Positions 16,201-61,488 of a stretch of 64,000 nucleotides of DNA are shown piece after piece (the stretch's first letter is position 1; each line of letters opens with the position of its first letter). Under the pieces are notes generated by a model, which was given only the letters and a program-made list of their open reading frames with translations, searched no databases and was not told where the DNA came from. The stretch lies in assembly GCA_022695795.1 (NCBI GenBank), contig MU404058.1, positions 558,001-622,000 on the forward strand, read 5' to 3'. The position numbers were made by a program, and so were the translations under genes. The stretch comes from Biscogniauxia marginata. Its lineage: Eukaryota > Ascomycota > Sordariomycetes > Xylariales > Xylariaceae.

Positions 16201-17060
16201 CTTAATAAAACGAATAAAAATTAAATAAAAATTGTTTATAACGTATTATCCTTAAACGAACGGGTAAATAAAGAAACTAAACTAGATAATAGAATAGTAC
16301 TTACGAAGCTATATTAACTGGGAAATGAATAACTAGGTAGAACTGTTATTAATAGTTTAAATAGCATATAACATTTCGATTAATAAAGACATGAAAATGT
16401 CATTATACAAGGCAGTATATAGGTAAAAGGCGGAAGCTTAAAGACAACCAATCGAACTCACGGAAGTATTAAGAGTCGAAATAAAGGCCTCGAGAGTAGA
16501 AGTACTATTCAAAAAGATTTAGGTAGTATAATAATGGCTATAAAAAGAATTACAGTTTATTTAGGATAAAATAACAAAGTACTATAATAAAAAAAGAATT
16601 AAAGGACTAATTCTTAAAAGAGGAGATATAGTTTACTTGCTTCGCTAACGACAAGGTGTAACATTAAAAACACCTTAAATTAAAATAAAGCGACTTAATA
16701 AAAAACTTAAATTTAAGAAATTAGGATTATATAAAATCAAGAAAATTATTTTAAAAGTTAATTATAAGCTAGCACTATTAAAAGGATCTAAAATATATCT
16801 TATATTTTATATTTCGCTTTTAAAACCAATATTAAATAACGCTATACTAGAAAATCAACTAAAATTTAAAGAAAACCCTAATAAGTACGAAATAGAAAAA
16901 ATACTAGATTTAAAACGAATCGAAAGTTAATTATAATATTTTGTTAAATGAGAGGGTTACCTACTAAAAAAAAACATTTAAGAACCACTTAAGCATTTAA
17001 AGAATTTGACGAATGAACTTAAGAATTTTCACCGCTAAAACCTAGATCGTTTAAAGGGAT
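13300..17060 (+). pseudogene. Element B pol: PR-RT-RNase H-IN-chromodomain, RIP-inactivated
   Basis: The protease has a damaged DSG site (ALIDLRTN, 13660-13690) and MILGINWL (13862-13920). RT carries DGYYIIKMAKGHE, then VMPFRL, then VFIYLDNILIYL (14690-14730), in which the second Asp of the LDD site is Asn. RNase H has WYLVAYLF and KELLIVIKALKK (15150-15400). In integrase, HPLYSY and CNIYNKAK (zinc-binding part), WDFIMKL at 15962 and VNRLMKYAYF, an Asp-to-Asn change, lie in about 15700-16480. The chromodomain has YFVK*EGYL at 16937 and EPLKHLKNL, to 17050. All of pol is in one frame, different from gag. Many stops make it inactive. Confidence 0.88.
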
Positions 17061-17094
17061 TTAAAGACCCGGTTCGTGACTTAATCGAGACTAA

Positions 17095-17648
17095 TCAAAG
17101 GAGGGGAAAACCCCCGAAGCAAGTATGTCTTGCTTAGATTTAAGTTAACGTAACGATTCCTTCGTACGTTACTATTCTTTATTAAAACGCTATTACTCTG
17201 CCTTAAAAAGCTTTTACTTCTTTAACTTATTTAAATTTTTGAGTTTATACTAAATAAATTTTACTTCTCGCTTATAAAGAAACTTGAATTATCGGTTTAA
17301 GTGGAATATACGAGCCGAGAGCTTTTAAAGGCTTTAAAAAATACGTCGGTGTTTCTTAAAAGCCGTATATTTCTCTTTATTAACGCGTAGTTTTTTTAAA
17401 TAAATGTTTTTTAGGGAATTAAAAGAAATGCGATTTTCGTTACATTAAAAAATATTTATTTTAATATAATTTTAACATTTTTTACGACCTTTTAACATTT
17501 TATAAGTAAAGCCCTAATCGAAATAGCGGGAGCACGGCATAACTTCGAAACTAAACTCGGCGATCGCGGAAACTAATTCATAATAATATTTAATAGAACT
17601 CTTTTTTAAATCTAGTCGAGAACGTTTGGTTATTCTACTTAAAAACAT
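17095..17648 (-). pseudogene. Antisense Cys-rich accessory frame of element B
   Basis: It starts with ATG at 17648, 68 bp inside the 3' LTR, and runs opposite to pol toward the chromodomain. Residues early in the frame are MFLSRITKRSRLDLK. A second in-frame Met at 17540 opens MPCSRYFD, matching MPYSRCFD in element J. Near the C-terminus the block TKESLR (near 17150) and VFPSFD (near 17110) match J, K and A. The internal stops are consistent with RIP of Gln or Trp codons. I do not recognise an assigned function. The Cys pairs suggest a metal-binding head followed by a charged, probably helical body. Confidence 0.6.
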
Positions 17649-18197: not shown

Positions 18198-19615
18198 AAA
18201 TTATAAATTAAAAATTAATAAAAAAGATATCTAAATATTTAAATAACAAAATAATAAATTTATTATATTTACTTATATATAAATTAACATAAAAAATTAA
18301 AAATAACGTTTTAAAAAAGGATATAATTAAAAAGAAAAGTAGTTATAATCGTAATAAGGATTTAATAACGAATTTTTTATATTAAGAAAAAGTTTATATA
18401 CCGGAATAAATCTAAAATAAATTTATTAAGAAATTTTCAAAACGTTAAAACAACTTTAAAAAAATCGATTTTTTAAAAATACGATAAATAATTAAAAAAG
18501 TTATAAAGAGTTATAACGTTTATAATAAAGCTAAAATATTACGATATAAACTATATAAATTATTATAATTAACTTAAATACATAATAAAGCATTATATAT
18601 AATTATATGGGATTTTATAATAAAACTTTTTAAGTTAAAAAACCTTATTATAAAAGTACTTTATAACAATATATAAGTAATTATTAATAAACTCATGAAA
18701 TATGCCTACTTTTTACCGTTTAATAAGTTAAATATAATAAAATAATTAGCTTTTAATTTCTTAAAAAAATACGTTAATAAATATAGATTATTAAAACGTA
18801 TTATTTTAAATAAAAATAAATTATTTATATTAAAATTTTAAACTAGCTTAATAAAACGAATAAAAATTAATAAAAGTTATTTATAACGTATTATTCTTAG
18901 TTAAACGAATAAATAAAGAAACTAAATCAAATAATAAAATAATATTTATAAAGTTATATTAACTAAGAAATAAATAACTAAGTATAATTACTATTAATAA
19001 CTTAAATAATATATAACACTTCGTTTAATAAGAATATAAAGATATTATTATACGAAACAATATACGATTAAAAACCAGAAATTTAAAAATAATTAATTAA
19101 ACTCATAATAACACCAAAAATCAAAACAAAAACCCTAAAAATAAAAGTACTATTTAAAAAGGTTTAAATAATATAATTATAATTATAAAAAGAATTATAA
19201 TTTACTTATTTCGTTAACGATAAAACGTATTAATAAAAACGCCTTAAATTAAAATAAAACGGCTTAATAAAAAACTTAAATTTAAAAAGTTAAAACTATA
19301 TAAAATTAAAAAAGTCGTTTTAAAAGTTAATTATAGACTTTTTTTTCTAAAAAAATCTAGAATATACCTCGTATTTTATATTTCATTCTTAAAACCAACA
19401 TTAAAAAACGCTTTACTAAAAAACTAATTAAAACTTAAAATAAATATTAAATTTAAAATAAATCGGTAATTAGTTATAATATTTTATTAAATAAAAAAAT
19501 TACTCACTCGAGAAAAACACTTAAAACCCATTTAATTACTTAAAAAACCTAATAAATAAACTTATAAATTTTTATTACTAAAACCTAAATCGATTAAAAG
19601 GGCTTAAAAGTTAAA
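18198..19615 (+). pseudogene. Element A pol, 3' part (integrase and chromodomain)
   Basis: This is the continuation of the pol interrupted at 10097. Sequence just after 18197 aligns with 15520 onward in element B. Integrase remnants lie at about 18380-19050, with WDFIIKLF near 18610 and KYAYF-like residues at 18700. The chromodomain remnant is at about 19440-19580. Decay is heavy, with the Cys, His and Asp positions mostly changed. It overlaps nothing else and is followed by the antisense frame. Confidence 0.68.
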
Positions 19616-24868: not shown

Positions 24869-25440
24869 ATGTTTAATAATCGTATTATTAAGCGTTAACG
24901 TTTAAATTTAAAAAAAAACGCGAAAGTTTTACGTAACGAATTAATCGTTACGAAGTAAATATTAATATTATACTTTGTTTTTATTGTTTCGAGTATAATT
25001 TATTATATATTATAACGTTTAAGGAGTTATTAAAGTGTAATAAGTATGTTTATTAAAAAGGCTTATATAATGGTTCCGAGATACCTTTAAATTCTTTTAA
25101 TCATTTAAATTTAAAAAAAGAGCGACTTCTCTTTTAAAAGCGTTAAATAAAATTAATTTTTATTTATCGTTAAAAGGAAATCTTTTAGTTATAAAAAAAG
25201 ATTTATGAATTTATTATTTATATATTTCGCTTACGTCGTTAACGCGACTTTATTCGAAAAAAGAGTTTAAAAATGTTATAACGTGGTTTTTAAAACTTAA
25301 ACGAGTTAAAAAAATAAAAGCGTTTTGAAAAAGAATAAAAACGTTTTTAAGCTAAATAATAGTTTTTAACTAAATAAGTTAAAGTTATTTTCGAGGCCGT
25401 TCCCTTTTTTAATTAATTATAACTAAGTTATAACTTAAAT
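24869..25440 (+). pseudogene. Antisense Cys-rich accessory frame of element E
   Basis: ATG at 24869 is 74 bp from the 3' LTR, opposite in direction to pol. It reads MFNNRIIKR, comparable with MFSNCITKR in J. Further on come LCFYCFEY (Cys cluster, near 24975), LKCNKYVY and IPLNSFNHLNLKKERL (near 25085-25125). The last of these is almost the same as IALNSFNRLDVKKERL of J. EAVPFFN near 25395-25415 marks the C-terminal block. Stops such as the TAA after IIKR fit RIP of Gln codons. Function unknown. Confidence 0.6.
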
Positions 25441-28400
25441 CTTTAAACCTTTTTAAGCGATTTAAGTTTTAGCGGTAAAAGCTTTTAAGCTCGTTTATTA
25501 GGTTTTTTAAGTGCTTAAAAGGTTCCTAAGTATTTTCCTTTAATAAGTAACCTTTTTATTTAACAAGATATTATAATTAATTATTAATTTATTTTAAATT
25601 TAGTATTTTTTAAATTTTAATTGGTTTTTTAATAAAACGTTTTTTAATATTAATTTTAATAACGATATATAAAAAACTAAATATATTTTAGATTTTTTTA
25701 ATAATTTTAATTTATAATTAATATTCGAGATAATTTCCTCGATTTTATATAATTTTAACTTTTTAAACTTAAGTTTTTTATTAAGTCGTTTTATTTTAAT
25801 TTAAGGTGTTTTTATTATTACGCTTTGTTATTAGCGAAATAAGTAAATTATATTTTTTTAAGAATTAGTTTTTTAATTCTTTTTTTGTTATAATACTTTA
25901 TTATTTTGTTTAAAATGAATTATAATTCTTTTTATAGTCGTCGTTATACTATTTAAACCTTTTTAAATACTATTTTTACTTTTAAGGCTTTTATTTCGAT
26001 TTTTAGTGCTTTTATAAGTTTAATTAGTTGTTTTTAAATTTCTACTTTTTAATTATATATTATTTTGTATAATAACATTTTTATGTTTTCGTTAATTAAA
26101 GTGTTATATATTATTTAAGTTATTAATAATAATTTTACTTAGTTATTTATTTCTTAGTTAATATAACTTTTTAAATATTATTTTATTATTTAGTTTAATT
26201 TCTTTATTTGTTTATTTATTTAGGGATAATATATTATAAATAACTTTTATTTAACTTTTATTCGTTTTATTAAGTTAATTTAAAACTTTAAAGTAAATAA
26301 CTTGTTTTTATTTAAAATAATACGTTTTAGTAATTTATATTTATTAATATATTCTTTTAGGAAATTAAAAGCTAGTTATTTTGCTATGTTTAATTCGTTA
26401 AATAATAAAAAGTAAGTATATTTTATAAGTTTATTAATAATTACTTATATATTGTTATAAAGTATTTCTATAGTAGGATTTTTTAACTTAAAAAGTTTTA
26501 TTACGAAATCTTATATAATTATATGTCACGCTTTATTAAGTATTTAAGTTAATTATAATAATTTATATGATTTATATCGTAATGTTTTAGCTTTATTATA
26601 AACGTTATAATTCTTTTAATTATTTATCGCATTTTTAGAAAGTTAAATTATTTTTAAAGTCGTTTTAACGTTTTGAAAATTCCTTAATAATTATATAAAA
26701 GGTATTCGTAAAATTCTTTAATAAATTCGTTTTATACTCGTTTTAATACGTAAGTCTTTTCTTTATACGAGAGAAATTTATTATTAAATTTTTGTTAAAA
26801 CTATAATTATTTTTCTTTTTAATTATAATTTTCTTTAAAATGTTATTTTTAGTTTTTTATATTAATTTACATATAAATTAATATAATTGATTTATTAATT
26901 TATTATTTAAATATTTAAATATCTCTTTTATTAATTTTTAATTTATAATTTCTTTTTTTATTAAAAAAATTATTTAAATGTTTTTTTAATATAATAAATT
27001 TTAAAATTAAAATTAAATAAGAAAATCATTTAACGTTTATATTTTTAATTAAGTATTTATATTATTATAAATCATATAAGGTTTTTATAATTCAAATAAA
27101 TATTAATAAGTTTCTTAGTTCTATTATGTTATAATTCTTATTTTTTTAATGCTTTAATAACTATTAATAGTTTCTTGTTATAAATCTAATAATTTAATTT
27201 AGCGCTATATAGTGCTTTAAATAAGTATATAACTAAGTACTATTTTTATTATTTTTTAGTTATTTTAAAACTATTTTCATGGCGAAATTTAAAGCGTTTA
27301 TCTTTAGTTATTTCTTTTTATTTTCGTTTAAAAGTTTATATATAACTTTATTAATTATAATTTCTTTTAGTTATTAAAAAACCTATTTAGCTTTTTTAGT
27401 AAAATGAAAAGCTTTTTTTATTTTCATTAAAGTAATTAATTTTATTAATAGTTTAGCGATTCGCTTAAAATCTTAAATAAGTTATTTAATATAATTAATA
27501 AAACCAAGAAATACGTATATATTTCTAACATTTTTAAGTTTTAGCTAATCTTTAATTATTATTATTTTTCCTTTTTAAATTCGGATTTCTTTTAGATTTA
27601 TTATAAACCTTAAATAATTTAATTTTTTAATATATTATTTATTTTTAATTAAAAAAATAAGTAAATTTGCTTTTTTAGGGTTTTTAACATTTATTTTATA
27701 TGTTTTTTATGCTTTTTTTATTTTTAAGTAAATTAATATATTATTTAAATAAATAAATAGAAATTTATTTAAAAACTTACGAAGAATTATTATAATTATA
27801 TATTAAAATATAATGAGTACGTTAATAAGTTTAAATAATATAATTTTATATTTATAATATTTATATATTATTTAAAAAGCTATATATTATTCGTGTTTTT
27901 TAGTTATTTTAATTATATAACAATTATCGCGGAGATTTAGTGCTATAAAGATTTAAGTTTTATTAATAATAACGAGTATTTATTCTTTTTTATTATTTTA
28001 TTAAGGTGTTAATAATTAATTATTCGTCGTTATATTAATTTTTTTTATTAATATGTTATTTTTCGTTTTTATCGACCTTTAGTATTATAATTGCTAGGTA
28101 TTTTAACGAGGATTTTAACTTTTAAATATACTTTTTATTAAGATTCTTTTAAATTCCTTTTTATAATACCTTTTATTTTTCTTAATTTATAAGATATATT
28201 AAAAATAGTTTTAATTATTTTTTTAAAGTAAATTTAATAATTCTTTTTTTATTTTATTTTTAAATAATTTATAAAAACGGAGATATTTACGTAATACTTT
28301 TTTCGTTAGATTTTTAAGCTTAGTTACTTAAATTATATAAGCGATATATTTCGTTTTTATATTCGTTTTTTTAGTGTTATTTATGGTATTTATTTTATAA

Positions 28401-31153: not shown

Positions 31154-31762
31154 TATTACGAACCAACCAGGGTAAGTAATCAAATGACAAGGGTACTATC
31201 CCTATTATTCTTGGTTTAGCACCGGACATAAATCCCAGAAAAAAAGTAGCCTATGGTCACGTAATATAAATATATATAGATAAAACACATCTAGTAACAT
31301 CTAATGGAGAATGGATATATGTAGATAAAACACATTTAGTAATATCCAGTGGAGAGTAAATATGTGTAGATAAAACATATCTAGTAATATTTAGTGAAGA
31401 ATAAATGTGTATAAATAAAACACATTTAATAACATTTAATAAAAAGTAAATATATATAAATAAAACATATTTAAAGGTATTTAACATATTAATTAAGGAA
31501 TAAAAAATAGAATAAATAAATATAAAAAAAGATAAAATTCTTTATATATTTAGTTATTCATTCTAGTTTTTTAGTTATTAATTTAAGATTATAATTACTT
31601 CTTAATATTATAATAAAAGTACCTTGAAATCTTTTTAACGAATAAAATATTATAAATCATTTAAATTAATCTTAATTTATTATTACCTTTAAATCAAGAA
31701 AACCCAGTATATATTTACTTATGAAATTAATTAACTAAGAATATATAAGGAGGTTCGTCACA
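31154..31762 (+). repeat. 5' LTR of element F (609 bp) with five U3 repeat units
   Basis: It begins TATTACGAACCAACC and ends GGTTCGTCACA. U3 has five 45-bp units (about 31265-31487), each containing AGATAAAACACATCTAGTAA or a mutated version. The 3' LTR of the same element has one. The E-box is TCACGTAA at 31257-31264. The next bases, TTTTGATAGCTCTTTAA (31763 on), hold TTGATAGCT, exactly complementary to AGCTATCAA found in the less mutated LTR H. Confidence 0.92.
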
Positions 31763-40200: not shown

Positions 40201-40660
40201 TTATTCGAAAAAGTTTAAGTAATATAATTACGATTATAAAAGGAGTTATAGTTTATTTAAAATAAAATAACAAAGTATTACAACAAAAAAAGAATTAAAG
40301 AACTAATTTTTAAAAAAGAAGATATAGTTTATTTGCTTCGTTAATAATAAGGCGTATTAATAAAAACGCCTTAAATTAAAATAAAATAGCTTAATAAAAA
40401 ACTTAAGTTTAAGAAGTTAAAACTATATAAGATTAAAGAAGTCATTTTAAAAGTTAATTATAAACTCTCTCTTTTAAAAAAATCCAAAATATATTTTATA
40501 TTTCATATTTTACTTTTAAAACTAGTACTAAAAAACGTTTTTTTAAAAAACTAATTAAAATTTAAAAAAACCCCTAATAAGTACGAAATTAAAAAGATAT
40601 TAAATTTAAAATAAGTTAATAATTAATTATAATATCTTGTTAAGTAGGAAGGTTACCTAC
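37220..40660 (+). pseudogene. Element G pol, with deletions, cut by element J
   Basis: Protease at 37610-37890. RT at 38280-38710, with VYLNDILIYL at 38650-38680 (first catalytic Asp changed to Asn). About 230-240 bp linking RT to RNase H, present at 14953-15186 in B, are missing at about 38908. RNase H remnant at 38920-39140, integrase at 39430-40150 with a 32-bp deletion near 39890. The chromodomain starts at about 40590 and is interrupted after EGYL by J. It resumes at 48272 with EENT. Confidence 0.75.
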
Positions 40661-41112
40661 TGTGACGAACCTCCTTGTGTGTTCCTAGTCAGCTGACTTC
40701 ACAAGTAAGTACGTACTAGGTTTTCTTGGTTTAAAGGTAACAGTGGGTTGAGATTAGTTCAAGTGATTTATAATGTTATGTTCGTTAAAGAGGTTTTAAG
40801 GTACTCTTATTATAGTATTAAAAAGTGATTATAGTTTTAGATTAATAGCTAAGGAATAAATAACTAAATACATAGGAAATTCCAATTTATTTATACTCGT
40901 TTTTCCTTATATATATTTCTATTATTTAGTATGTTAAATATCGATGGATATAAAATCCCTTTATATTTATCCTTGTTAGATATGATATCTCACTATATCC
41001 ACGTCACGTGAGGTTACATTATGACTGGAACGGAACCAACCTGTTTATTAATTCCTTGGTTCGTGCCACGATACCTTGGTATGGAATCCCTTTATTTCTA
41101 TGGTTTATAACA
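40661..41112 (-). repeat. 3' LTR of element J (452 bp)
   Basis: The reversed ends are TGTGACGAACC and TTATAACA. Palindromes AGTCAGCTGACT (40687-40698) and AGTACGTACT (40708-40717) lie in U5. TCACGTGA is at 41004-41011. Differences from the other J LTR appear to be all transitions in the stretches compared. Confidence 0.94.
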
Positions 41113-41188
41113 CTATTTCTCCCCTTTTAGAATCTTTGTTTTAAAAACTATTCTTAATAAGTTATTTTTTCTTCCTTTTATAATAATT

Positions 41189-41815
41189 ATGTTTAGTAAT
41201 TGTATTACTAAGCGTTATCGTTTAGACCAGAAATTTGAACGCGAAAGACTTACATATCAGATAAATAAGTTGGGTTTTAATTTTGAAATTATGCCTTATT
41301 CCCGTTGCTTTGATTAGGCGCTTAAGTGTGTTATGGCAAAAGGAGAGTCTCGAAAATGTAGTGAATGTGTTCGTGAGGGTTGTCTCTGCGATGGAACCGG
41401 TATTGCTTTAAATTCTTTTAATCGGTTAGATGTTAAGAAGGAACGGTTGTTTCGATAAGAACGACAAGCGGAGAAGACTTTTCTTCTTTATTAAGCCGAA
41501 ATAACTTGTTTATAGTCAGAAATTAATTGTTTTTAAATCGAGGTTAATAAATTCATTAATTGTATATTACGCTTACGTCGTTAGCGAGACTTTCTTAAAT
41601 AGAAAGGTTTTAAAATGTTATAACGGGGTTTTTAAGATTTAAACGAGCTGGAAAAGTAGGAGTGTTTAAAGGAGGAATAAAAGCGTGTTATAATTAAATA
41701 GTAGCGTCTTCTTAAAAAACAGCAAAACACGGAAGAATCGCTGCGTTAACTTGTATCTAGGTAAGGCGTGCTTACTTTGGAGGTTTTCTCCTTCTTTAAC
41801 TGGTTTTAACTAGGT
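41189..41815 (+). pseudogene. Antisense Cys-rich accessory frame of element J (best preserved)
   Basis: ATG at 41189 is 77 bp from the LTR, antisense to pol. The frame can be followed for about 209 codons. Its interruptions are TAG and TAA codons, as RIP of CAG, CAA or TGG would give. Order: MFSNCITKRYRLDQ, Met 35 opening MPYSRCFD, a Cys cluster KCSECVREGCLCDG (from 41354, C-x2-C-x5-C-x-C), NSFNRLDVKKERL, a long charged and probably coiled-coil body with RLRR and LNELEK, NTEESLR (near 41730), and VFSFFNW near 41790-41805. No assigned function is known to me. It is shared by all seven elements in the window. Confidence 0.68.
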
Positions 41816-41829
41816 CACGACCTGGGTCC

Positions 41830-44800
41830 TTAAATTCCTTTAAACGATCTAGGTTTTAGCAGTAAAAGCTTTTAAGTTTATTTGTTAAATTCTTTAAATG
41901 TTTAAGTGGTTTTTAAGTGTTTTTTTTAGGTAAGTAACCTTCTTATTTGACAAAATACTGTAATTAACCTCCGATTCGTTTTGAATTTAGTATCTTTTTT
42001 ATTTCGTATTTATTAGGGTTTTCTTTAAATTTTAGTTGGTTTTTTGGTATGACGTTATTTAGTACTGGTTTTAAAAGCGAAACATAAAATATAGGATATA
42101 TTTTGGATCTTTTTAGTAGTACTAGTTTATAATTAACTTTCGAAATAACTTTTTTAATTTTATATAGTTTTAATTTTTTAAATTTTAGTTTTTCGTTAAG
42201 TTGTTTTATTTTGATTTAAGGTGTTTTTAATATTACGCCTTGTCGTTAACGGAGTAAGTAGATTATATCTCTTTTTTTAAGAATTAGTTCTTTAATTCTT
42301 TTTTTATTATAGTATTTTGTTATTTTGTCTTAAATGAATTGTAATTCTTTTTATAGCCGTTATTATACTGCCTAGATTTTTTCGGATAGTACTTCTGCTT
42401 TCGGGGCCTTTGTTTTGACTCTTGGTGCTTTTGTGAGTTTAATTAATTGTCTTTAGACTTCCGCTTTTTGCTTGTATATTGCCTCGTGTGGTAATATCTT
42501 TATATTCTCGTTAATTGAAGTGTTATATGCTATTTAGGCTACTAGTAATAATTCTACCTAGTTATTTATTTCCTAGTTAATATAACTTTGTAAATATTGT
42601 TTTATTATTTAGTTTAGTTTCTTTATTTATTTATTTATTTAGGGGTAATACGTTATAAATAACTTTTATTTAATTTTTATTCGTTTTATTAAGTTGGTCC
42701 AAAATTTTAACGTGAATAACTTGTTTCTATTTAAAATAACGCGTTTTAGTAACCCATGTTTATTAACATATTTTTTTAAGAAGTTAAAAGCTAACTATTT
42801 TGTTATGTTTAATTTGTTAAATGGTAAGAAGTAGGTGTATTTCGTGAGTTTATTAATAATTACTTATATATTGTTATAAGGTACTCTTATAGTAAGATCT
42901 TTTAACTTTAAGAGTTTTATTACGAAGTCCCATGCAATTATATTCTATGCTTTATTAGGTATCTAGGTTAGTTATAGTAATTTATATGGTTTATATCGTG
43001 ATGCTTTAGCCTTATTATAGATGTTACAATTCTTTATAATTCTTTTAATTGTTTGTTGTATTTTTAGAAAGTCGAATTCCTTTTAAAGTCGTTTCACCGT
43101 TTTGAAAATCCCTTAATAGCCATGTAAAGGATATTCGTGAAATTCTTTAATGAATTCGTTTTATACTTGTTTTAGTATATATACCTTTTCCTTATATGAG
43201 AGAAATTCGTCGCTAGATCTTTATTAAGATTATAATTGTTTTTCCCTTTAACTGTAATTTTCCTTAAAACGTTATTTCTAGTCTCCTATGTTAATTCGCA
43301 TGTAAGCTAATATAATTAATTTGTTATTTTGTTATTTAAATATCTAGATATCTCTTTTATTGATTTTTGATTTATAATCTCCCTTTTTACTAAGAAGATT
43401 TATTTAAATGTTTTTTTTTCCCTTAATGTGCTGAATTCTGAAATTAAATCTAGACAAGAAAATCATTTAACGCTTATGTCTCTAGTTAAGCGTTTATGTT
43501 GTTATGAATTATGTAAGGTTTTTGTGGTTTAAATAGATGTTAATAAGTTCCTTGGTTTCGCTAAGTTATGGTTCCCATTTTTTTAGTGCTTTAATGACTA
43601 TTAATAGTTCCTTGTTATAAATCTAATAATTTAGTTTAGCACTATATAGTGCTTTGGATAGGTACGTGATTAGGTACCATTTTCTATTGTTTTTTAGCTG
43701 CTTTAGGACTGCTCTAATGGCGAAATTTAAGGTGTTTATCTTTAGTCGTTTCTTTTTATTTTCGTTCGGAAGTTTATATATAACCTCGCTAGTTATAACT
43801 TCTTTTAGTTGCTAGAAAGCCTGTTTGGCTTTTTTAGTAAAATGGAAAGCCTTTTTTGTTTTTGCTAGGGTAGTTAATTCCGTTAATGGTTTAGCGATAC
43901 GCTCGAAATCCTTAATAAGTTATTTAATATAATTAATAAAGCCAAGAAATGCGCGTACGTTTATGACATTTTTAGGTTCTAGCTAATTCTTGATTATTAC
44001 TATTTTTCCTTTTTAAATGCGAATTTCTTTTAGACTTATTATAAACCCTAAATAATTTAGTTTCTTAATATGTTATTTGTTTTTAATTGAATAAACGAGT
44101 AGGTTTGCTTTTTCCAGGGCTTTTAATACTTATTCTACATGTTTTTTATGTTTTTTCTCGTTTTCTAAGTAAATTAGTATATCGTTTAAGTAAATAAATA
44201 TAAATTTATTTAAAAACCTGCGAAGGATTATTATAATTATATATTGAAATGTAACGGGCGCGTTAGTAAGTTTAAATAGCATAACTTTGTATTTATAATA
44301 TCTATATATTGTTTAAAAGGCTATATATTATTTATATTTTTTGGCTATTCTAATTATATAGTATTTATCGCGAAAGTTTAATGTTATGAAGATTTGGGCC
44401 TTGTTGATTTATTCTTTTATGAGTTTTATTAGTAGTAACGAATACCTGTTTTTCTTGGTTATTTTATTGAGGTGTCGGTAATTAATTATTCGTTTTTATA
44501 TTAGGTTTCCTTTTTTATTAACACGTTATTTCTCGTTTTTGTCGATTTTGGGTACCATGATTACCGGGTATCCTAACGAGGATTTAGATTTTCGAATATA
44601 TCCTTTATCGAGATCCTCCTAAATTCCCTTTTATAGTACTCTTTGTTTTTCTTAATTTATAAGATATATTAAGAATAATTTTAGCTGTTTTCCTTTTTTA
44701 AAGTAAATTTAGTGATTCTATTAACTATGTTTTAGTAATTCTTCTTTTGTTTTATCTTTAAATAATTTATAGAAACGGAGGTACTCGCGCGGTACTCTTT

Positions 44801-45600
44801 TCGTTAGATTTTTAAGTTTAGTTATTTAAATTATATAGGCGATATGTTTCGTTTTTGTATTCGTTTCTCTGGAGTTATTTATAGTACTTATCTCGTAACT
44901 TGTAATGGTTAACTCCTTTTGTTTTTAATCCCAATAAAGCATGTTTGCCTCGAAATTTATTTGTGAATTACTTTTTTTAAGTTAATTCATTCTTAAGATT
45001 ATATCGTGATTTAATATATATGTAATATTAAGAATGATTTGTTTAAAATGTCTTTAAATAGTTACCGAAAAAAGAATTATTTCTCTTAACACCTTATCAT
45101 TCTTATAACTAAACATGTTTCTTTTAAAGTTTTATAACTTATATAAACTTTATTTATATACCTATGGTATTTTATCTTCCTAAGTTACCTTTACTAAGAC
45201 ATAGCTTTTATTTACTCCTGAATTTATTAGGGCTTTATACTCTTTTTCATTATACCTAACTCTGGTTATAATAGTGTTATTAAGTCTTAACTAGACTTCA
45301 TATAAGGACTTATTATTTATGGCTTTTCGCTGCTTTACTGGCGAAAGCCTTTACTGTTTTTTGGTTTTCCATGTTCCTTCCCTTTTAGTTTTTTTTTAGT
45401 TGTTATAACCTAGATATCCTTCCATTCTTAGGCTTTCATAGGAGCGTGTTTCTAGTAATCATTACTTAGATAGTCTCTTTAATTACCTTTTACATAGTAA
45501 GGAGTAAGAGGTTTATTCTTTATATAGAATTTTGTATATTGAAACTTCAATTCTTTTTCGAGAGCCCTTTTATAGCCCAAGTCTATTTTATTAACTTAGA
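41830..45600 (-). pseudogene. Element J pol, RIP-inactivated
   Basis: Reading right to left: protease with its DSG region at 45218-45245 and ILGINWL-type end at 44981-45035, RT at 44170-44580 with the LDD site at 44185-44200 as YLNDIL, and RNase H at 43540-43800. Integrase is at 42420-43190, with the zinc part near 43110-43160 and the TKYAYF-type region near 42835. The chromodomain at about 41840-42010 reads LQYFVK*EGYLPKKNT and KPLKHLKNL. The Trp codon of the aromatic cage is a stop. The enzymes are inactive. Confidence 0.85.
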
Positions 45601-45689
45601 ATTTTTTAAAGTTCTGGATTATCTTTAAATAAAAAGAGTAATTATTAAGTCTATTTATTAAAGGTATCTCGATATCTCCCCTCAGGTTT

Positions 45690-47615
45690 ATATTAATTTC
45701 TAGGAGTTTCCCTCCTTTTTTAAGGTATGCTTTAGTGATTTATTTATAGCCTCGTTTAGTCGTACGTGTTTTTGCTTACTACTTTATTAAGTGTTTCCCT
45801 ATAAAGCCGAATAAATTAATATCGTATTTAGTTCGTTTTTCGAGCCATTATAGAAAATATAGTCCCTTTTATAATTCCTATAATTCTTCCTTTATTTCGT
45901 TTTTTTCGAAACCTATTTCGAGCAAGTTATATATGTCGCATAGTACCGAGGTGTAATATATACAACTTTTAACCATTACTTCGTAGCTTTTTTCGGAGCT
46001 TAAATAAAAATAACATGCTTTAAGGTAATGTGGCTATCGTGGGGTATTATCGCAAATACACTTATTTTCTTTTATGTCGTTACTTTCTAGTTCTTAAGAA
46101 TAATAACCGGCTTTATCCTTAAAACTTTTATATTCTTAATAAGCGTCGTTAGTATAAAAGCTTTAATGTAACGATATATGTTCCCTTAAGTTTTAATGGA
46201 TATTATAATTATTATTTATATAAAGCTTCCAATTTAAGCTATTATGCTGGCTTTTCCCTTAATAGGTTTCGCATTTGTCGTTTTTGCAGTGGCTTTAATG
46301 TAGATCACTATGGTTTAACTCAATTCCTAAGTCGTATCCTAGCTTGTAGTTATTACACATGTATAATAGTTCGCTTTCGTTATATCTTTATCTGGCTTGT
46401 TCTAGTGTGAGATATCCTAGATACGAGTAGTCATTCTCTAGGCAGTCTTTGCAGTTAACTTAATAAAATCTATAGATTTCTTTTACAAAAGCCTTTTTAA
46501 TCTTTTCTACTTTAATAGTATTAATAATAAATACTTGGTTTATCTCTTTGTTATTTTCAAATTAAACTTTTACTTTAGCGATTCTTTTCTTGAGTTAAGG
46601 AATTTCTTTTATTTTTAGTTCTTATTTTTTAAGACTTTAACATTCGTTTTTATAATGTCTTTTCTTTTTACAGTTAAAATATTTAATAGTTAATTTATTT
46701 CGTTTTTTTCGTTTTTTTCGTTTTTTTTGAATAACGTTGATTTTAATAGGATTTAACTTTGTTTTAGTGCTTTTTTTGGTTCCGGTACCGCTTTTGTGAT
46801 TTCCTCTTTTTAGCTGGTCGCCATTCTTTCGTTATATCGTTTTTTTCTTTTTAAAGTATCGTTCGAAGTTCTCGTTATTAATAGTAATTACCATTATAAC
46901 GTAGTCATTAAACTTCCCTGGGTTCTTTTCTTTATACAGGTTTGTTTTATATAACTCATTTTTTATATGGTTTTTTAACCCTTAATAAAATAAATAATAT
47001 AGGCTTTTAATAAGTAGTTGTGACTAACTTGTGAGTTTTTTGAACTTAACAACATAATCTAAAGCCTTCTTATCTTGTCGTAGTTTATAAAGTCGAGCTT
47101 CGGCTTATTATTTAAGGATTAGATTGCTAAATATAAACCTAAGTTATTTTTCAAACTCCTTATAATTTTTGAAGACTTTTTTTGTGTTTTTCTGGGCGTT
47201 TAATCCGTTTTCTAAATGATTTTTTAACACTAGTTAAAACCAGGTCAAGGCGGTTCCAGCAAGGAGCTGAAATACCATAAAAACCTTTTATTCCTTAGTA
47301 GTAATCGTTTTATAATAGAATCGTAAATAGGTTCCAGCCTAAATTAAAAATCCTTTTAAATCGCTTAACCTATTATATTTACTAGGTATAATTAGTTTAA
47401 AACCCTTTACGTCGAGGGTTGTTATATTGTCGTCGTCGTTCGAGTTGTTAAGGTCGCTATCGTTTAAAGGTGGTTAGGGTTATTTTACTTATTTGTTTTC
47501 TTCCTTAGGCATTTTTTTCTCCTCCTTTTCTTCTTTTTTAAATGCTTTTTCTTGCTGATCTTTTAAGATGTCCTCCTGTAACTCTTTTTTAGCTATAATT
47601 ATAATAAACTCTTGT
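45690..47615 (-). pseudogene. Element J gag, RIP-inactivated
   Basis: The capsid segment is well preserved: VFQLLAGTALTWF on the minus strand at about 47230-47275, followed upstream by TYLRF near 47332. The knuckle is at 46620-46700 with mutated Cys/His. A short TTTTTTCG tandem (46711-46740) lies beside it. Relative to RT, the gag frame differs from pol, as in the other copies. Confidence 0.78.
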
Positions 47616-47802
47616 GTTAATTCCTTTAAATATTTTAGTCGTATCGTAAAAAGACCTAAAGCTTTCGTTTAAAAGCTTATTAATTATTGTTTTTTTACTT
47701 GTTTTTTTTCTTGTTGCCTTTTGGTTTTAAGGGGCATATTTATCTTGGGATTATTTCGATTAAAAGTCCCTCTTTTTAAATTAATGTTAAACACTAATTA
47801 AG

Positions 47803-47814
47803 GAGCTATTAAAA
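47803..47814 (-). promoter_or_regulatory. Putative self-priming site of element J
   Basis: AGCTATTAA (47804-47812, plus strand) lies two bases from the 5' LTR and is complementary to TTAATAGCT within both J LTRs (40842-40850, 47996-48004). The spacing of two bases is the same as in B and K. Confidence 0.5.
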
Positions 47815-48266
47815 TGTAACGAACCTCCTTATGTGTTTTTAGTTAATTAACTTCATAGGTGAGTACGTATTAGGTTTTCTTAGTTTAAAGGTAATAGTGG
47901 GTTAAGATTAGTTTAAGTGATTTATAATGTTATATTTGTTAAAAAGGTTTCAAGGTATTTTCATTATAGTATTAAAAAGTGACTATAGTTTTAGATTAAT
48001 AGCTAAGGAATGAATAACTAAATATATAGGAAATTTTAATCTACTTATACTTGTTTTTCTTTATACACATTTCCACTGTTTGGTATGTTGGATACCGATG
48101 GATATGAAATCCCTCCATATTTATCCCTGTTGGATATGATATCCCACTATATCCATGTCACGTGAGGTTACATCATGACCGGAACGGAACTAACCTGTTT
48201 ATTAATTCCTTGGTCCGTGCCACGACACCCTGGTATGGAATCCCTCTATTCCCATGGTTCGTAACA
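47815..48266 (-). repeat. 5' LTR of element J (452 bp)
   Basis: It has the same length as the 3' LTR. U3 keeps GGATATGAAATCCC and GGATATGATATCCC, related near-palindromes (about 48098-48143), and TCACGTGA at 48158-48165. It ends GGTTCGTAACA beside the duplication CCTAC. Confidence 0.94.
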
Positions 48267-48390: not shown

Positions 48391-48918
48391 AAAAAGATAA
48401 GTCGAAAAAAGGAACGACCTCGGAAGTAACTTTAGCTTGCTCGGCTAAAGATTATTATTTAATTTAAAAACGTTTCTACTTCTCTTTTAAACGCTTTTAT
48501 TTTTCTAACTCTACTTTTTCGAGATTTTTTATAAATAAAAAAAACCACGTTTTAATATTTTTAAATCCCTTTTTTATAAATACTTTTTTTATTTGCGAAG
48601 ATAAGTAAAACGACTAACAAGGGCTTAAAGCTCCTTTTCCGCTTTACGACGCTTATTAATAATATAATTCCTCTCGCGGCCGAGATCCGCTAAATTAAAC
48701 ATTTCGATACCGGAACCGTCGTAATAATTATAAGCTTTAACCGCATAATAAGAACATGTTTTAAATTAAGGCACTATAAAGTAACGAAGATCTATTTTAA
48801 AATAATAAAAACAAGGAAATACCTTATAATTATATAAACGAATATAAGTAGTAATAAAATCACGGGATTTATATTGAGTCTTTAAAGGTTTCGAAATAGA
48901 TTTAAATATATCGAACAT
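48390..48918 (-). pseudogene. Antisense Cys-rich accessory frame of element G
   Basis: ATG at 48918 is 77 bp from the 3' LTR. Readable pieces are MFDIFKSISKP, then VFPCFYYFK (the Met of the second start is lost), TCSYYAVKAYNYYDGSGIE (Cys cluster with Cys-to-Tyr changes, near 48720-48700) and NLADLGRER. At the C-terminus comes SEVVPFFDLSFLG (near 48430-48390). The PFF block matches A, E, F, J and K. Confidence 0.6.
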
Positions 48919-59748: not shown

Positions 59749-59940
59749 TTAACAAGTTAAGTATAATAGAATAATTAGTTTTTAGTTTCTTAAGAAAGTA
59801 CGTTAATAAATATAGATTATTAAAACACATTATTTTAAATAGAAATAAGTTATTTATATTAAAATTTTGGATTAATTTAATAAAATAAATAAAAGTTAAA
59901 TAAAAGTTATTTATAACGTATTATCCCTAAATAAACGAAT

Positions 59941-60052
59941 AAATAATAAAACTAAACTAAATAATAAAACTAAACTAAATAATAAAACTAAACTAAATAA
60001 TAAAACTAAACTAAATAATAAAACTAAACTAAATAATAAAACTAAACTAAAT
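59941..60052. repeat. 18-bp tandem repeat running into an assembly gap
   Basis: The unit AAATAATAAAACTAAACT is repeated about 6.2 times with no visible divergence, up to the first N. The homologous place in B and G has one unit. The true length is unknown. Confidence 0.92.
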
Positions 60053-60152
60053 NNNNNNNNNNNNNNNNNNNNNNNNNNNNNNNNNNNNNNNNNNNNNNNN
60101 NNNNNNNNNNNNNNNNNNNNNNNNNNNNNNNNNNNNNNNNNNNNNNNNNNNN
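60053..60152. other. Assembly gap, 100 N
   Basis: Exactly 100 unknown bases, the usual placeholder for a gap of undetermined size. It probably arises from unresolved copies of the flanking repeat. Confidence 0.97.
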
Positions 60153-60929
60153 AATAAAACAATATTTACAAAGTTATATTAACTGGGAAATAAATAACTA
60201 GGTAGAATTACTATTAATAACCTAGATAACATATAATACTTCGGTTAACGAAAACATAAAAATATTACTATACAAAACAATATATAGTTAAAAAGCAGAA
60301 ATTTAAAAATAATTAATTAAACTCATAGAAACATTAAAAGTCGAAATAAAAACCCCGAAAATAAAGGTATTATCCGAAAAAGTCTAAACAGTATAACGAC
60401 GACTATAAAAAGAATTATAATTTATTTAAAATAAAATAATAAAATATTATAACAAAAAAAGAATTAAAAGACTAATTCTTAAAAGAGAAAACATAATTTA
60501 CTTACTCCGCTAATAATAAAGCGTAATAATAAAAACACCTTAAATTAAAACAAAACGGCCTAGTAAAACACTTAAATTTAAAAAGTTAAAACTATATAAA
60601 GTCAAAGAAATTATTTTAAATGTTAATTATAAATTAAAACTATTAAAGAAATTTAAAATATATTTAGTTTTTTATATATCGTTATTAAAACTAGCATTGA
60701 AAAACGTCTCGTTAAAAACCCGGAATAAGATTAAAAAAACTAAATAAATATAAAATAAAAAGGATTTTAAACTTAAAAAAATTAATAATTATAATATTTA
60801 ATTAAATAAAAAAGATATTTATTAAAAGAAAATACATAAAAACCATTTAAACACTTAATAAACTTAAAAGACGTATTTAATAAATTTTATCAACAAAACC
60901 CGAATTAGCTAAAAAGGCCTAAAATTTAA

Positions 60930-61488
60930 GATCTTAACCCAGGAAAAACAAGTTAAAAGAAAAGACGACCTCGGAAGCAACTTTAACCTACTTAACTAGA
61001 GATTATTACTTCTCTTTTAAACGTTTTTACTTCTTTAATTCATTTAAATTTTAAAAACCACGTTAAAACATTTATAAACTTTTCTCTTTTAATAACTCCT
61101 TTTAACGACGAAGCCGTTTTACCCGAGCTATAGTTTTAGCCATTTCTCGATTTACTTAAGTTATAGTCTCGGCTATTTCTTAATAAAGTCGTTTTAGGGT
61201 TTTTTTGGCTTGACGTTTTTATAAAAATAACTACTTCTCCTTATAATTTAAATTTCGAAAAAAACTAAAAGGAATCCCTATTTCATTATATTAACGTTAA
61301 TAAAAAGTATATTTATTACATTTCTTTAATACCTTAAACGATATTATATATTTTAAGTTATAATTAAAATAATAAAAACAAAGCATAATATTAATATTAA
61401 AACTTATTTGATTAATTCGATTAATAAGCTCTTTACGACCATGCTTTTAATTTTCACGACGACGCTTAATACTAAGATTAATAAACAT
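60930..61488 (-). pseudogene. Antisense Cys-rich accessory frame of element F
   Basis: ATG at 61488 is 68 bp inside the 3' LTR. It reads MFINLSIKRRREN, and an in-frame Met at 61386 is codon 35, exactly as in J. After it come MLCFYYFNYNLKY and LKKCNKY (Cys cluster, partly Tyr). ASEVVFSFNLFFLG near 60975-60935 is the C-terminal block. Stops are TAA/TAG. Confidence 0.6.

What the first reader, a model, noticed from the sequence alone, without database searches (positions are those of the whole stretch)
41189..41815. A Cys-rich antisense reading frame is conserved in all seven retrotransposons
Between chromodomain and 3' LTR, and on the strand opposite to gag-pol, each element has the same frame. 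ATG positions relative to the LTR are J 77, G 77, E 74, B 68 and F 68 bp; in K the matching codon is GTG at 84 bp. The features line up: an N-terminal MFxNxITKR-like start, a second Met at codon 35 in both J and F opening MPCSRC-like residues, a Cys cluster (KCSECVREGCLCDG in J, CFRCGEC in K), a charged helical body with KKERL, NTEESLR (A, J, K; TKESLR in B), and E(A/V)(V/F)PFF(D/N) at the end (A, E, F, G, J, K). Agreement at protein level between copies with unrelated U3s, and stops that look like RIP of Gln or Trp codons, suggest a real protein. A transcript from the 3' LTR running against pol could encode a DNA- or RNA-binding regulator. The function is inference.
Basis: partly seen in the sequence, partly recalled or inferred. 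Interest (0 to 1): 0.88.

Follow-up and report, generated by a model that had tools for sequence, protein, structure and literature searches.

The report
Swappable antisense regulator gene in retrotransposons
Fungal jumping genes in this window carry, on their opposite strand, a real gene for a small protein that looks like a DNA-binding gene switch, and different versions of it have been swapped, together with the promoter part of the repeat, between otherwise near-identical elements.

Summary

Best reading: a mobile cassette of antisense transcription factor plus its likely target, comparable to retroviral HBZ or a phage immunity region. Coding and cassette exchange are shown; DNA binding, U3 as target and antisense expression are inferred.

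The parts
41189..41815 (+). Antisense gene of element J, RIP-mutated (16 stops); probably continues to about 41890
41297..41389 (+). Zn2Cys6-like cluster, codons 37-67 (first Cys position is Tyr in J; other five kept)
   Evidence: read against A2 and the cysteine census
41408..41623 (+). Predicted coiled-coil part (codons about 74-145)
   Evidence: placed by alignment to helix 76-145 of the P0001 model
41690..41815 (+). C-terminal part of the antisense frame, overlapping the pol tail; not bound to one N-terminal allele
40890..41690 (.). Exchanged cassette: U3 + purine-tract gap + antisense codons 1 to about 165; diverged between alleles while the flanks are near-identical
40890..41112 (-). U3 part of the J 3' LTR (inner limit set by the divergence breakpoint)
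40638..40889 (-). R-U5 part of the J 3' LTR, shared by 58 of 60 loci in one cluster
41666..42215 (-). 3' end of J pol: integrase SH3-like part, chromodomain and basic tail
   Evidence: Pfam SH3_Tf2-1 E 3.5e-6 and Chromo E 1.1e-4, both just under cut-off in J; the same region of C118 is above cut-off (Chromo E 5.7e-17)
40638..48266 (-). Element J, LTR to LTR (ends read by eye)
17013..17648 (-). Antisense frame of the element with chromodomain at 16679 (allele 5)
   Evidence: E 3.9e-40 to C118
19622..19867 (-). Antisense frame remnant, C-terminal part, element with chromodomain at 19248
   Evidence: E 3.2e-6
24910..25344 (+). Antisense frame of the element with chromodomain at 25800
   Evidence: E 2.0e-20
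48610..48903 (-). Antisense frame of the element interrupted by J (chromodomain 40375-40611)
   Evidence: E 6.5e-4 to P0001
52735..53406 (+). Antisense frame of element K (allele 1)
61009..61488 (-). Antisense frame of the element with chromodomain at 60544
   Evidence: E 7.5e-17

Best explanation
The frame is the decayed copy of a real accessory gene of a chromodomain-bearing Ty3/gypsy family, antisense to gag-pol and converging with the pol tail. Its product of about 190-230 residues is built like a minimal Gal4-type transcription factor: basic N-terminus, Zn2Cys6-like cluster, long coiled coil (dimerisation), acidic tail with a conserved DW. Mechanism (inferred): an antisense transcript started in or near the 3' LTR is translated; the dimer binds dyad sites in the element's own U3 and sets its transcription, more likely as an activator (acidic tail) than a repressor. 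U3 and the N-terminal part of the gene are exchanged between elements as one cassette, in keeping with a recogniser that must match its target. Exchange is probably by template switching in reverse transcription: strand transfer at R gives one border, a switch at the pol end the other. Shown: coding, conservation, antisense position in this genome, cassette exchange. Inferred: DNA binding, U3 as target, sign of regulation, antisense expression. My estimates: real protein 0.97; DNA-binding regulator 0.75; acts on its own U3 0.5.
Confidence: 0.62

Rival explanations
1. The protein is real but the cassette has no functional coupling: U3 and the 3' gene are exchanged merely because template switching at R and at the pol end carries along everything in between.
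For: Borders fall at about 40890 and 41640-41690, where strand transfer and a switch could put them. Tnt1 also has interchangeable U3s (PMC1838419, passages). Alleles 3 and 4 break strict coupling.
Against: It does not explain why versions diverged at 0.11-0.17 transversions persist beside a pol median of 0.003, nor the Gal4-like build of the protein.
Confidence: 0.25
2. The protein binds DNA but serves integration-site choice or chromatin tethering of the element, not transcription of its LTR.
For: It lies beside a chromodomain and a basic AT-hook-like pol tail (read by eye); their tethering role is recalled knowledge.
Against: It is antisense and separate from pol, and its N-terminal part changes with U3 rather than with pol.
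Confidence: 0.08
3. The antisense RNA matters (double-stranded RNA, silencing) and the reading frame is incidental.
For: Spliced antisense RNAs of transposons, Ty3 elements among them, said not to encode meaningful peptides, are reported in Blumeria (PMC10648671, passages).
Against: Codon-position pattern, database relatives, open natural copy.
Confidence: 0.03
4. A zinc-bearing RNA-binding or packaging helper.
For: Cysteine-rich with a basic N-terminus; possible for any small element protein.
Against: Spacing and fold rows are Gal4-type, not CCHC knuckle (the knuckle spacing is recalled).
Confidence: 0.02

Closest known systems
Antisense additional ORFs between pol and 3' LTR of plant Gypsy elements (Grande gene23, RIRE2, Retand TRP28; PMC7264820 passages, PMC11963269 abstract and Discussion)
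   Same: Position, orientation, wide conservation, suspected DNA-binding or regulatory role
   Different: Plants and other lineages; TRP28 not compared here; no Zn2Cys6 and no co-exchange of ORF allele and U3 mentioned in what I read
HTLV-1 HBZ (recalled; the antisense promoter inside the HTLV 3' LTR is mentioned in PMC7264820)
   Same: Antisense gene near the 3' LTR, dimeric DNA-binding type of regulator
   Different: bZIP instead of Zn2Cys6; retrovirus; no evidence of common origin
Gal4-type Zn2Cys6 factors (GAL4, HAP1, PUT3, PPR1, LAC9)
   Same: Cys spacing, cluster followed by coiled coil; all fold rows; acidic tail (recalled for GAL4)
   Different: Much shorter, encoded antisense in a retrotransposon, under Pfam's cut-off
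Modular U3 evolution of Tnt1 (PMC1838419, passages including the abstract)
   Same: U3 diverges while a coding part (RNAseH) stays conserved
   Different: No antisense DNA-binding gene travelling with U3 is mentioned in what I read
Immunity regions of lambdoid phages (recalled)
   Same: Repressor and target sites vary as one block on a common backbone
   Different: Phages; here regulation is inferred only

Membership tests
Fungal Zn(2)-Cys(6) binuclear cluster (Pfam PF00172) | Six cysteines, C-x2-C-x6-C-x5-12-C-x2-C-x6-8-C (pattern recalled) | tested here: met
   42 of 44 rows of A2 with slightly wider limits, 39 exactly 2-6-8-2-6
Fungal Zn(2)-Cys(6) binuclear cluster (Pfam PF00172) | Pfam gathering score of 21 bits | tested here: not met
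   Best 13.9 bits in 14 proteins scanned one by one; 21 of 44 at E<=1, best E 0.001, scores not printed. Hence 'Zn2Cys6-like'
Fungal Zn(2)-Cys(6) binuclear cluster (Pfam PF00172) | PROSITE-type strict pattern (recalled) | tested here: inconclusive
   3 of 44 match
Fungal Zn(2)-Cys(6) binuclear cluster (Pfam PF00172) | Binuclear cluster fold | tested here: inconclusive
Fungal Zn(2)-Cys(6) binuclear cluster (Pfam PF00172) | Zinc and DNA binding | not testable with these tools
   Needs purified protein
Antisense accessory ORF between pol and 3' LTR (plant aORF-3R type) | Antisense, between pol and 3' LTR, conserved across copies | tested here: met
   60 of 61 oriented loci in this genome; its last part overlaps the pol tail. 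In other species only the protein is shown, not its position
Antisense accessory ORF between pol and 3' LTR (plant aORF-3R type) | Homology to TRP28 or GENE23 | not tested
   Sequences not at hand
HBZ | bZIP domain | tested here: not met
   No bZIP family among the rows
HBZ | Antisense transcription from the 3' LTR | not testable with these tools
   No RNA data
Ty3/gypsy chromovirus (host element) | Chromodomain at the integrase C-terminus | tested here: met
   Pfam Chromo 61.8 bits (cut-off 25.1) and SH3_Tf2-1 54 bits (cut-off 30) in C118; both just under cut-off in J

The most novel reading that the evidence does not exclude
The cassette is an immunity or incompatibility locus of a retrotransposon: each antisense Zn2Cys6-like protein recognises only the U3 of its own allele, so elements with the same gag-pol but different cassettes are regulated separately. 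Rare cassettes escape control by resident copies, which keeps many old alleles in play, as with phage immunity regions. Two facts lean this way: at least six alleles occur on near-identical pol, and the two natural low-RIP copies lie in different parts of the family tree, C118 beside another organism's protein (support 96/88), although a single clade is not rejected (p-AU 0.07).
Probability: 0.22. Interest if true: 0.95.

Novelty: new variant of a known kind. Interest (0 to 1): 0.84.

Why it matters
The plant review I read calls the functions of antisense accessory ORFs of LTR retrotransposons unknown (PMC7264820, passages). A family with a recognisable DNA-binding type of domain, whose natural alleles travel with different promoters on the same backbone, turns that into a direct test: does each protein bind its own U3? 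It would also explain a set of unnamed fungal 'hypothetical proteins', and would be a case where a mobile element carries its own swappable gene switch.

Tried and rejected
Chance or by-product of pol: rejected for the N-terminal 165 codons, which lie outside pol and show their own codon pattern. Not rejected for the C-terminal part, which overlaps pol.

Transversions by codon position within the J family: no signal (15/10/13 of 209 each, p 0.59), as expected for copies that differ only after insertion. The test works only between alleles. Pooled pairs against J are not independent, so I rest on four independent pairs.

Stops as evidence: in allele J the antisense frame has 2 all-stop columns against 5 and 13 in the other two same-strand frames, but 13 majority-stop columns against 10 and 20, and in the control frames all stops of variable columns are RIP-type too. 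Stop counts in eight allele representatives do not single the frame out. I therefore rest on C118, transversions and database relatives.

Searches that found nothing: Pfam on the RIP-mutated J and K frames, protein search with J, IMG/VR, NCBIfam. PDB by sequence gave only noise-level rows (LAC9 at E 1.1). Foldseek gave no row at E<=0.001.

A strict one-to-one link of U3 and gene is not fully met (alleles 3 and 4). L060 was oriented by a neighbouring element's chromodomain and is dropped from allele counts, leaving 9 of the 10 clusters; it is still in the pair medians. L054 and L063 held no chromodomain piece. Loci came from searches with J and K, so allele frequencies are biased and the allele number is a lower bound. 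The charge count used 40 of 59 proteins: 160 residues or more, with P0013, P0015, P0058 and P0059 left out for odd ends or starts.

Intron idea: by eye, 12 of 59 database proteins leave the alignment at one point after the zinc cluster, each with a residue that an NGT codon can encode (R, G or C), and 7 of 7 that clearly resume do so with Val or Ala before the conserved stretch; P0055 is unclear. This fits a phase-1 intron read through by gene callers, but I had no DNA for these, and whether they lie in elements is unknown.

Literature: ten searches ran. Their listings (titles and starts of abstracts, capped) showed no fungal antisense Zn2Cys6 gene; the library is open access only.

Full report
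Observation. It has 16 stops and lies opposite to pol. Seven integrase/chromodomain ends and seven antisense frames are present in the window; two of the seven are weak (C-terminal remnant at 19.6-19.9 kb, E 3.2e-6; 48.6-48.9 kb, E 6.5e-4). The window's own genome (45.3 Mb, 229 contigs) gave 148 protein-level matches to J and 117 to a K piece; the sets overlap. Of 63 loci held (some of the same place), 61 contain the integrase/chromodomain piece. After removing repeats and adding six window elements, 61 pieces were oriented; in 60 the antisense frame is on the strand opposite to that piece, L060 being the exception.

Is it a gene? Four lines say yes. (i) A natural copy on contig C118 has an ATG-to-stop frame of 230 codons beside a chromodomain above Pfam's cut-off, while no other frame of 120 codons or more lies in the 9 kb held. 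A second natural copy (C2, about 904 kb), seemingly an internally deleted element, is open over the zinc cluster. (ii) Against C118, four heavily mutated copies of the same allele have 78 stops, 77 of them reachable by C>T/G>A; over 2760 aligned bases there are 543 C>T/G>A changes, 10 in the opposite direction and 1 transversion. In allele J, 212 of 217 stop cells in columns where a sibling has a sense codon are of that type, but 2 of 22 stop columns are stops in all 21 copies, and the control frames look RIP-like too; stops by themselves therefore decide little. (iii) RIP makes transitions only, so transversions between alleles report older evolution. In four independent pairs they fall 104/483, 66/483, 132/482 on antisense codon positions 1, 2, 3 (p 9.6e-7): selection on the protein. 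(iv) A profile of two natural copies and two database proteins finds 59 database proteins, those two included, with named records from Apiospora, Corynascus, Cordyceps, Staphylotrichum, Thyridium, Neoarthrinium, Fusarium, Xylariaceae, Colletotrichum and Thermothelomyces (Sordariomycetes, recalled), called hypothetical or uncharacterized; most rows have no name. UniRef names of P0015 and P0046 mention a Zn(2)-C6 domain.

The cassette. J and K differ by 0-2 transversions per 100-bp bin from 41700 to 47999 and by 2-3 in R-U5 (40700-40899), but by 8-43 from 40900 to 41699. Against 60 other loci the same holds: the N-terminal part, U3 and gap are J-like in 20 loci and diverged in 40, while pol is 0.00-0.01 in most; exceptions are w24, w60, w19, L016, L019, L041 and L049 (0.02-0.22), some possibly from neighbouring insertions. 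Clustering gives 9 N-terminal alleles once L060 is dropped: six (21, 19, 7, 5, 3 and 2 loci) on near-identical pol and three singles (w19, w24, w60) whose pol differs from J by 2-6%. U3 clusters match them except that alleles 3 and 4 share one. R-U5 forms one cluster in 58 of 60 loci. Pol medians are 0.0032 within (416 pairs) and between (1414 pairs) alleles. Absolute values differ between aligners; the contrast does not. Fine borders: about 40890 and 41640-41690. The second is close to where the pol frame appears to stop, so the antisense C-terminus overlaps pol: allele J occurs with two pol-tail types (9 of its loci, including L013, L014 and L031, have the other one). Database proteins show a like mosaic: P0017/P0034 are 99/104 identical in the N-terminal part and 28/65 in the tail; P0016/P0020 62/105 and 48/51; P0002/P0003 56/105 and 66/79 (among the extremes of 858 pairs).

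History. In a tree the nine genome rows fall into two separate groups, one joined by another organism's protein (P0023, 97/93); six genome rows have biased composition. With only low-RIP rows C118 still joins P0023 (96/88), but one clade of the two genome rows is not rejected (p-AU 0.07).

Mechanism. A Zn2Cys6-like, coiled-coil, acidic-tailed protein is most simply a transcription factor. The stretch that changes with it is U3, the promoter part of the LTR, and U3s carry more GC-rich inverted repeats than shuffled sequence in the five alleles examined (simple shuffles, weak). I therefore favour an element-encoded regulator acting on its own U3. Linkage over about 76 bp is the main rival. Spliced antisense RNAs of transposons exist in another fungus (PMC10648671, passages).

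Known relatives. [quoted passage not shown] PMC7264820 passages). Tnt1 shows U3 modularity (PMC1838419 passages). HBZ and phage immunity regions are recalled.

Noticed in passing
window 40375-40611 and 48610-48903: Element J is inserted into another element of the same superfamily, between that element's chromodomain and its antisense frame.
   Followed up: partly
L063:3501-4500 (G000:C2, about 904 kb): A GC-rich island of about 1 kb in AT-rich DNA: a frame that looks gag-like by eye (Pfam found nothing) opposite the N-terminal part of the antisense gene; perhaps an internally deleted element that largely escaped RIP.
   Followed up: partly
L029:699-1172 and window 41666-41966 (-): The pol frame runs on past the chromodomain into a basic, AT-hook-like tail (RRRGRPPK in C118) that overlaps the antisense gene's C-terminus.
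   Followed up: partly
L062:1-9000 (C118): GC falls from about 0.5 over the antisense gene to 0.32-0.38 over the next kilobases, so RIP seems uneven along one element at a contig end.
   Followed up: no
database proteins P0025, P0026, P0028, P0031, P0041-P0043, P0051, P0052, P0054-P0056: All leave the alignment at one point after the zinc cluster, consistent with a phase-1 intron; J and C118 have no such insertion there.
   Followed up: partly
window 59900-60152: Short tandem repeat array (NNKTKL-like when read on the + strand) next to a 100-base run of N (60053-60152).
   Followed up: no
window 31257-31541 (-): Open frame made of imperfect repeats (YVLSTHIYSPLDITKC-like) in a stretch rich in LTR copies.
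   Followed up: no
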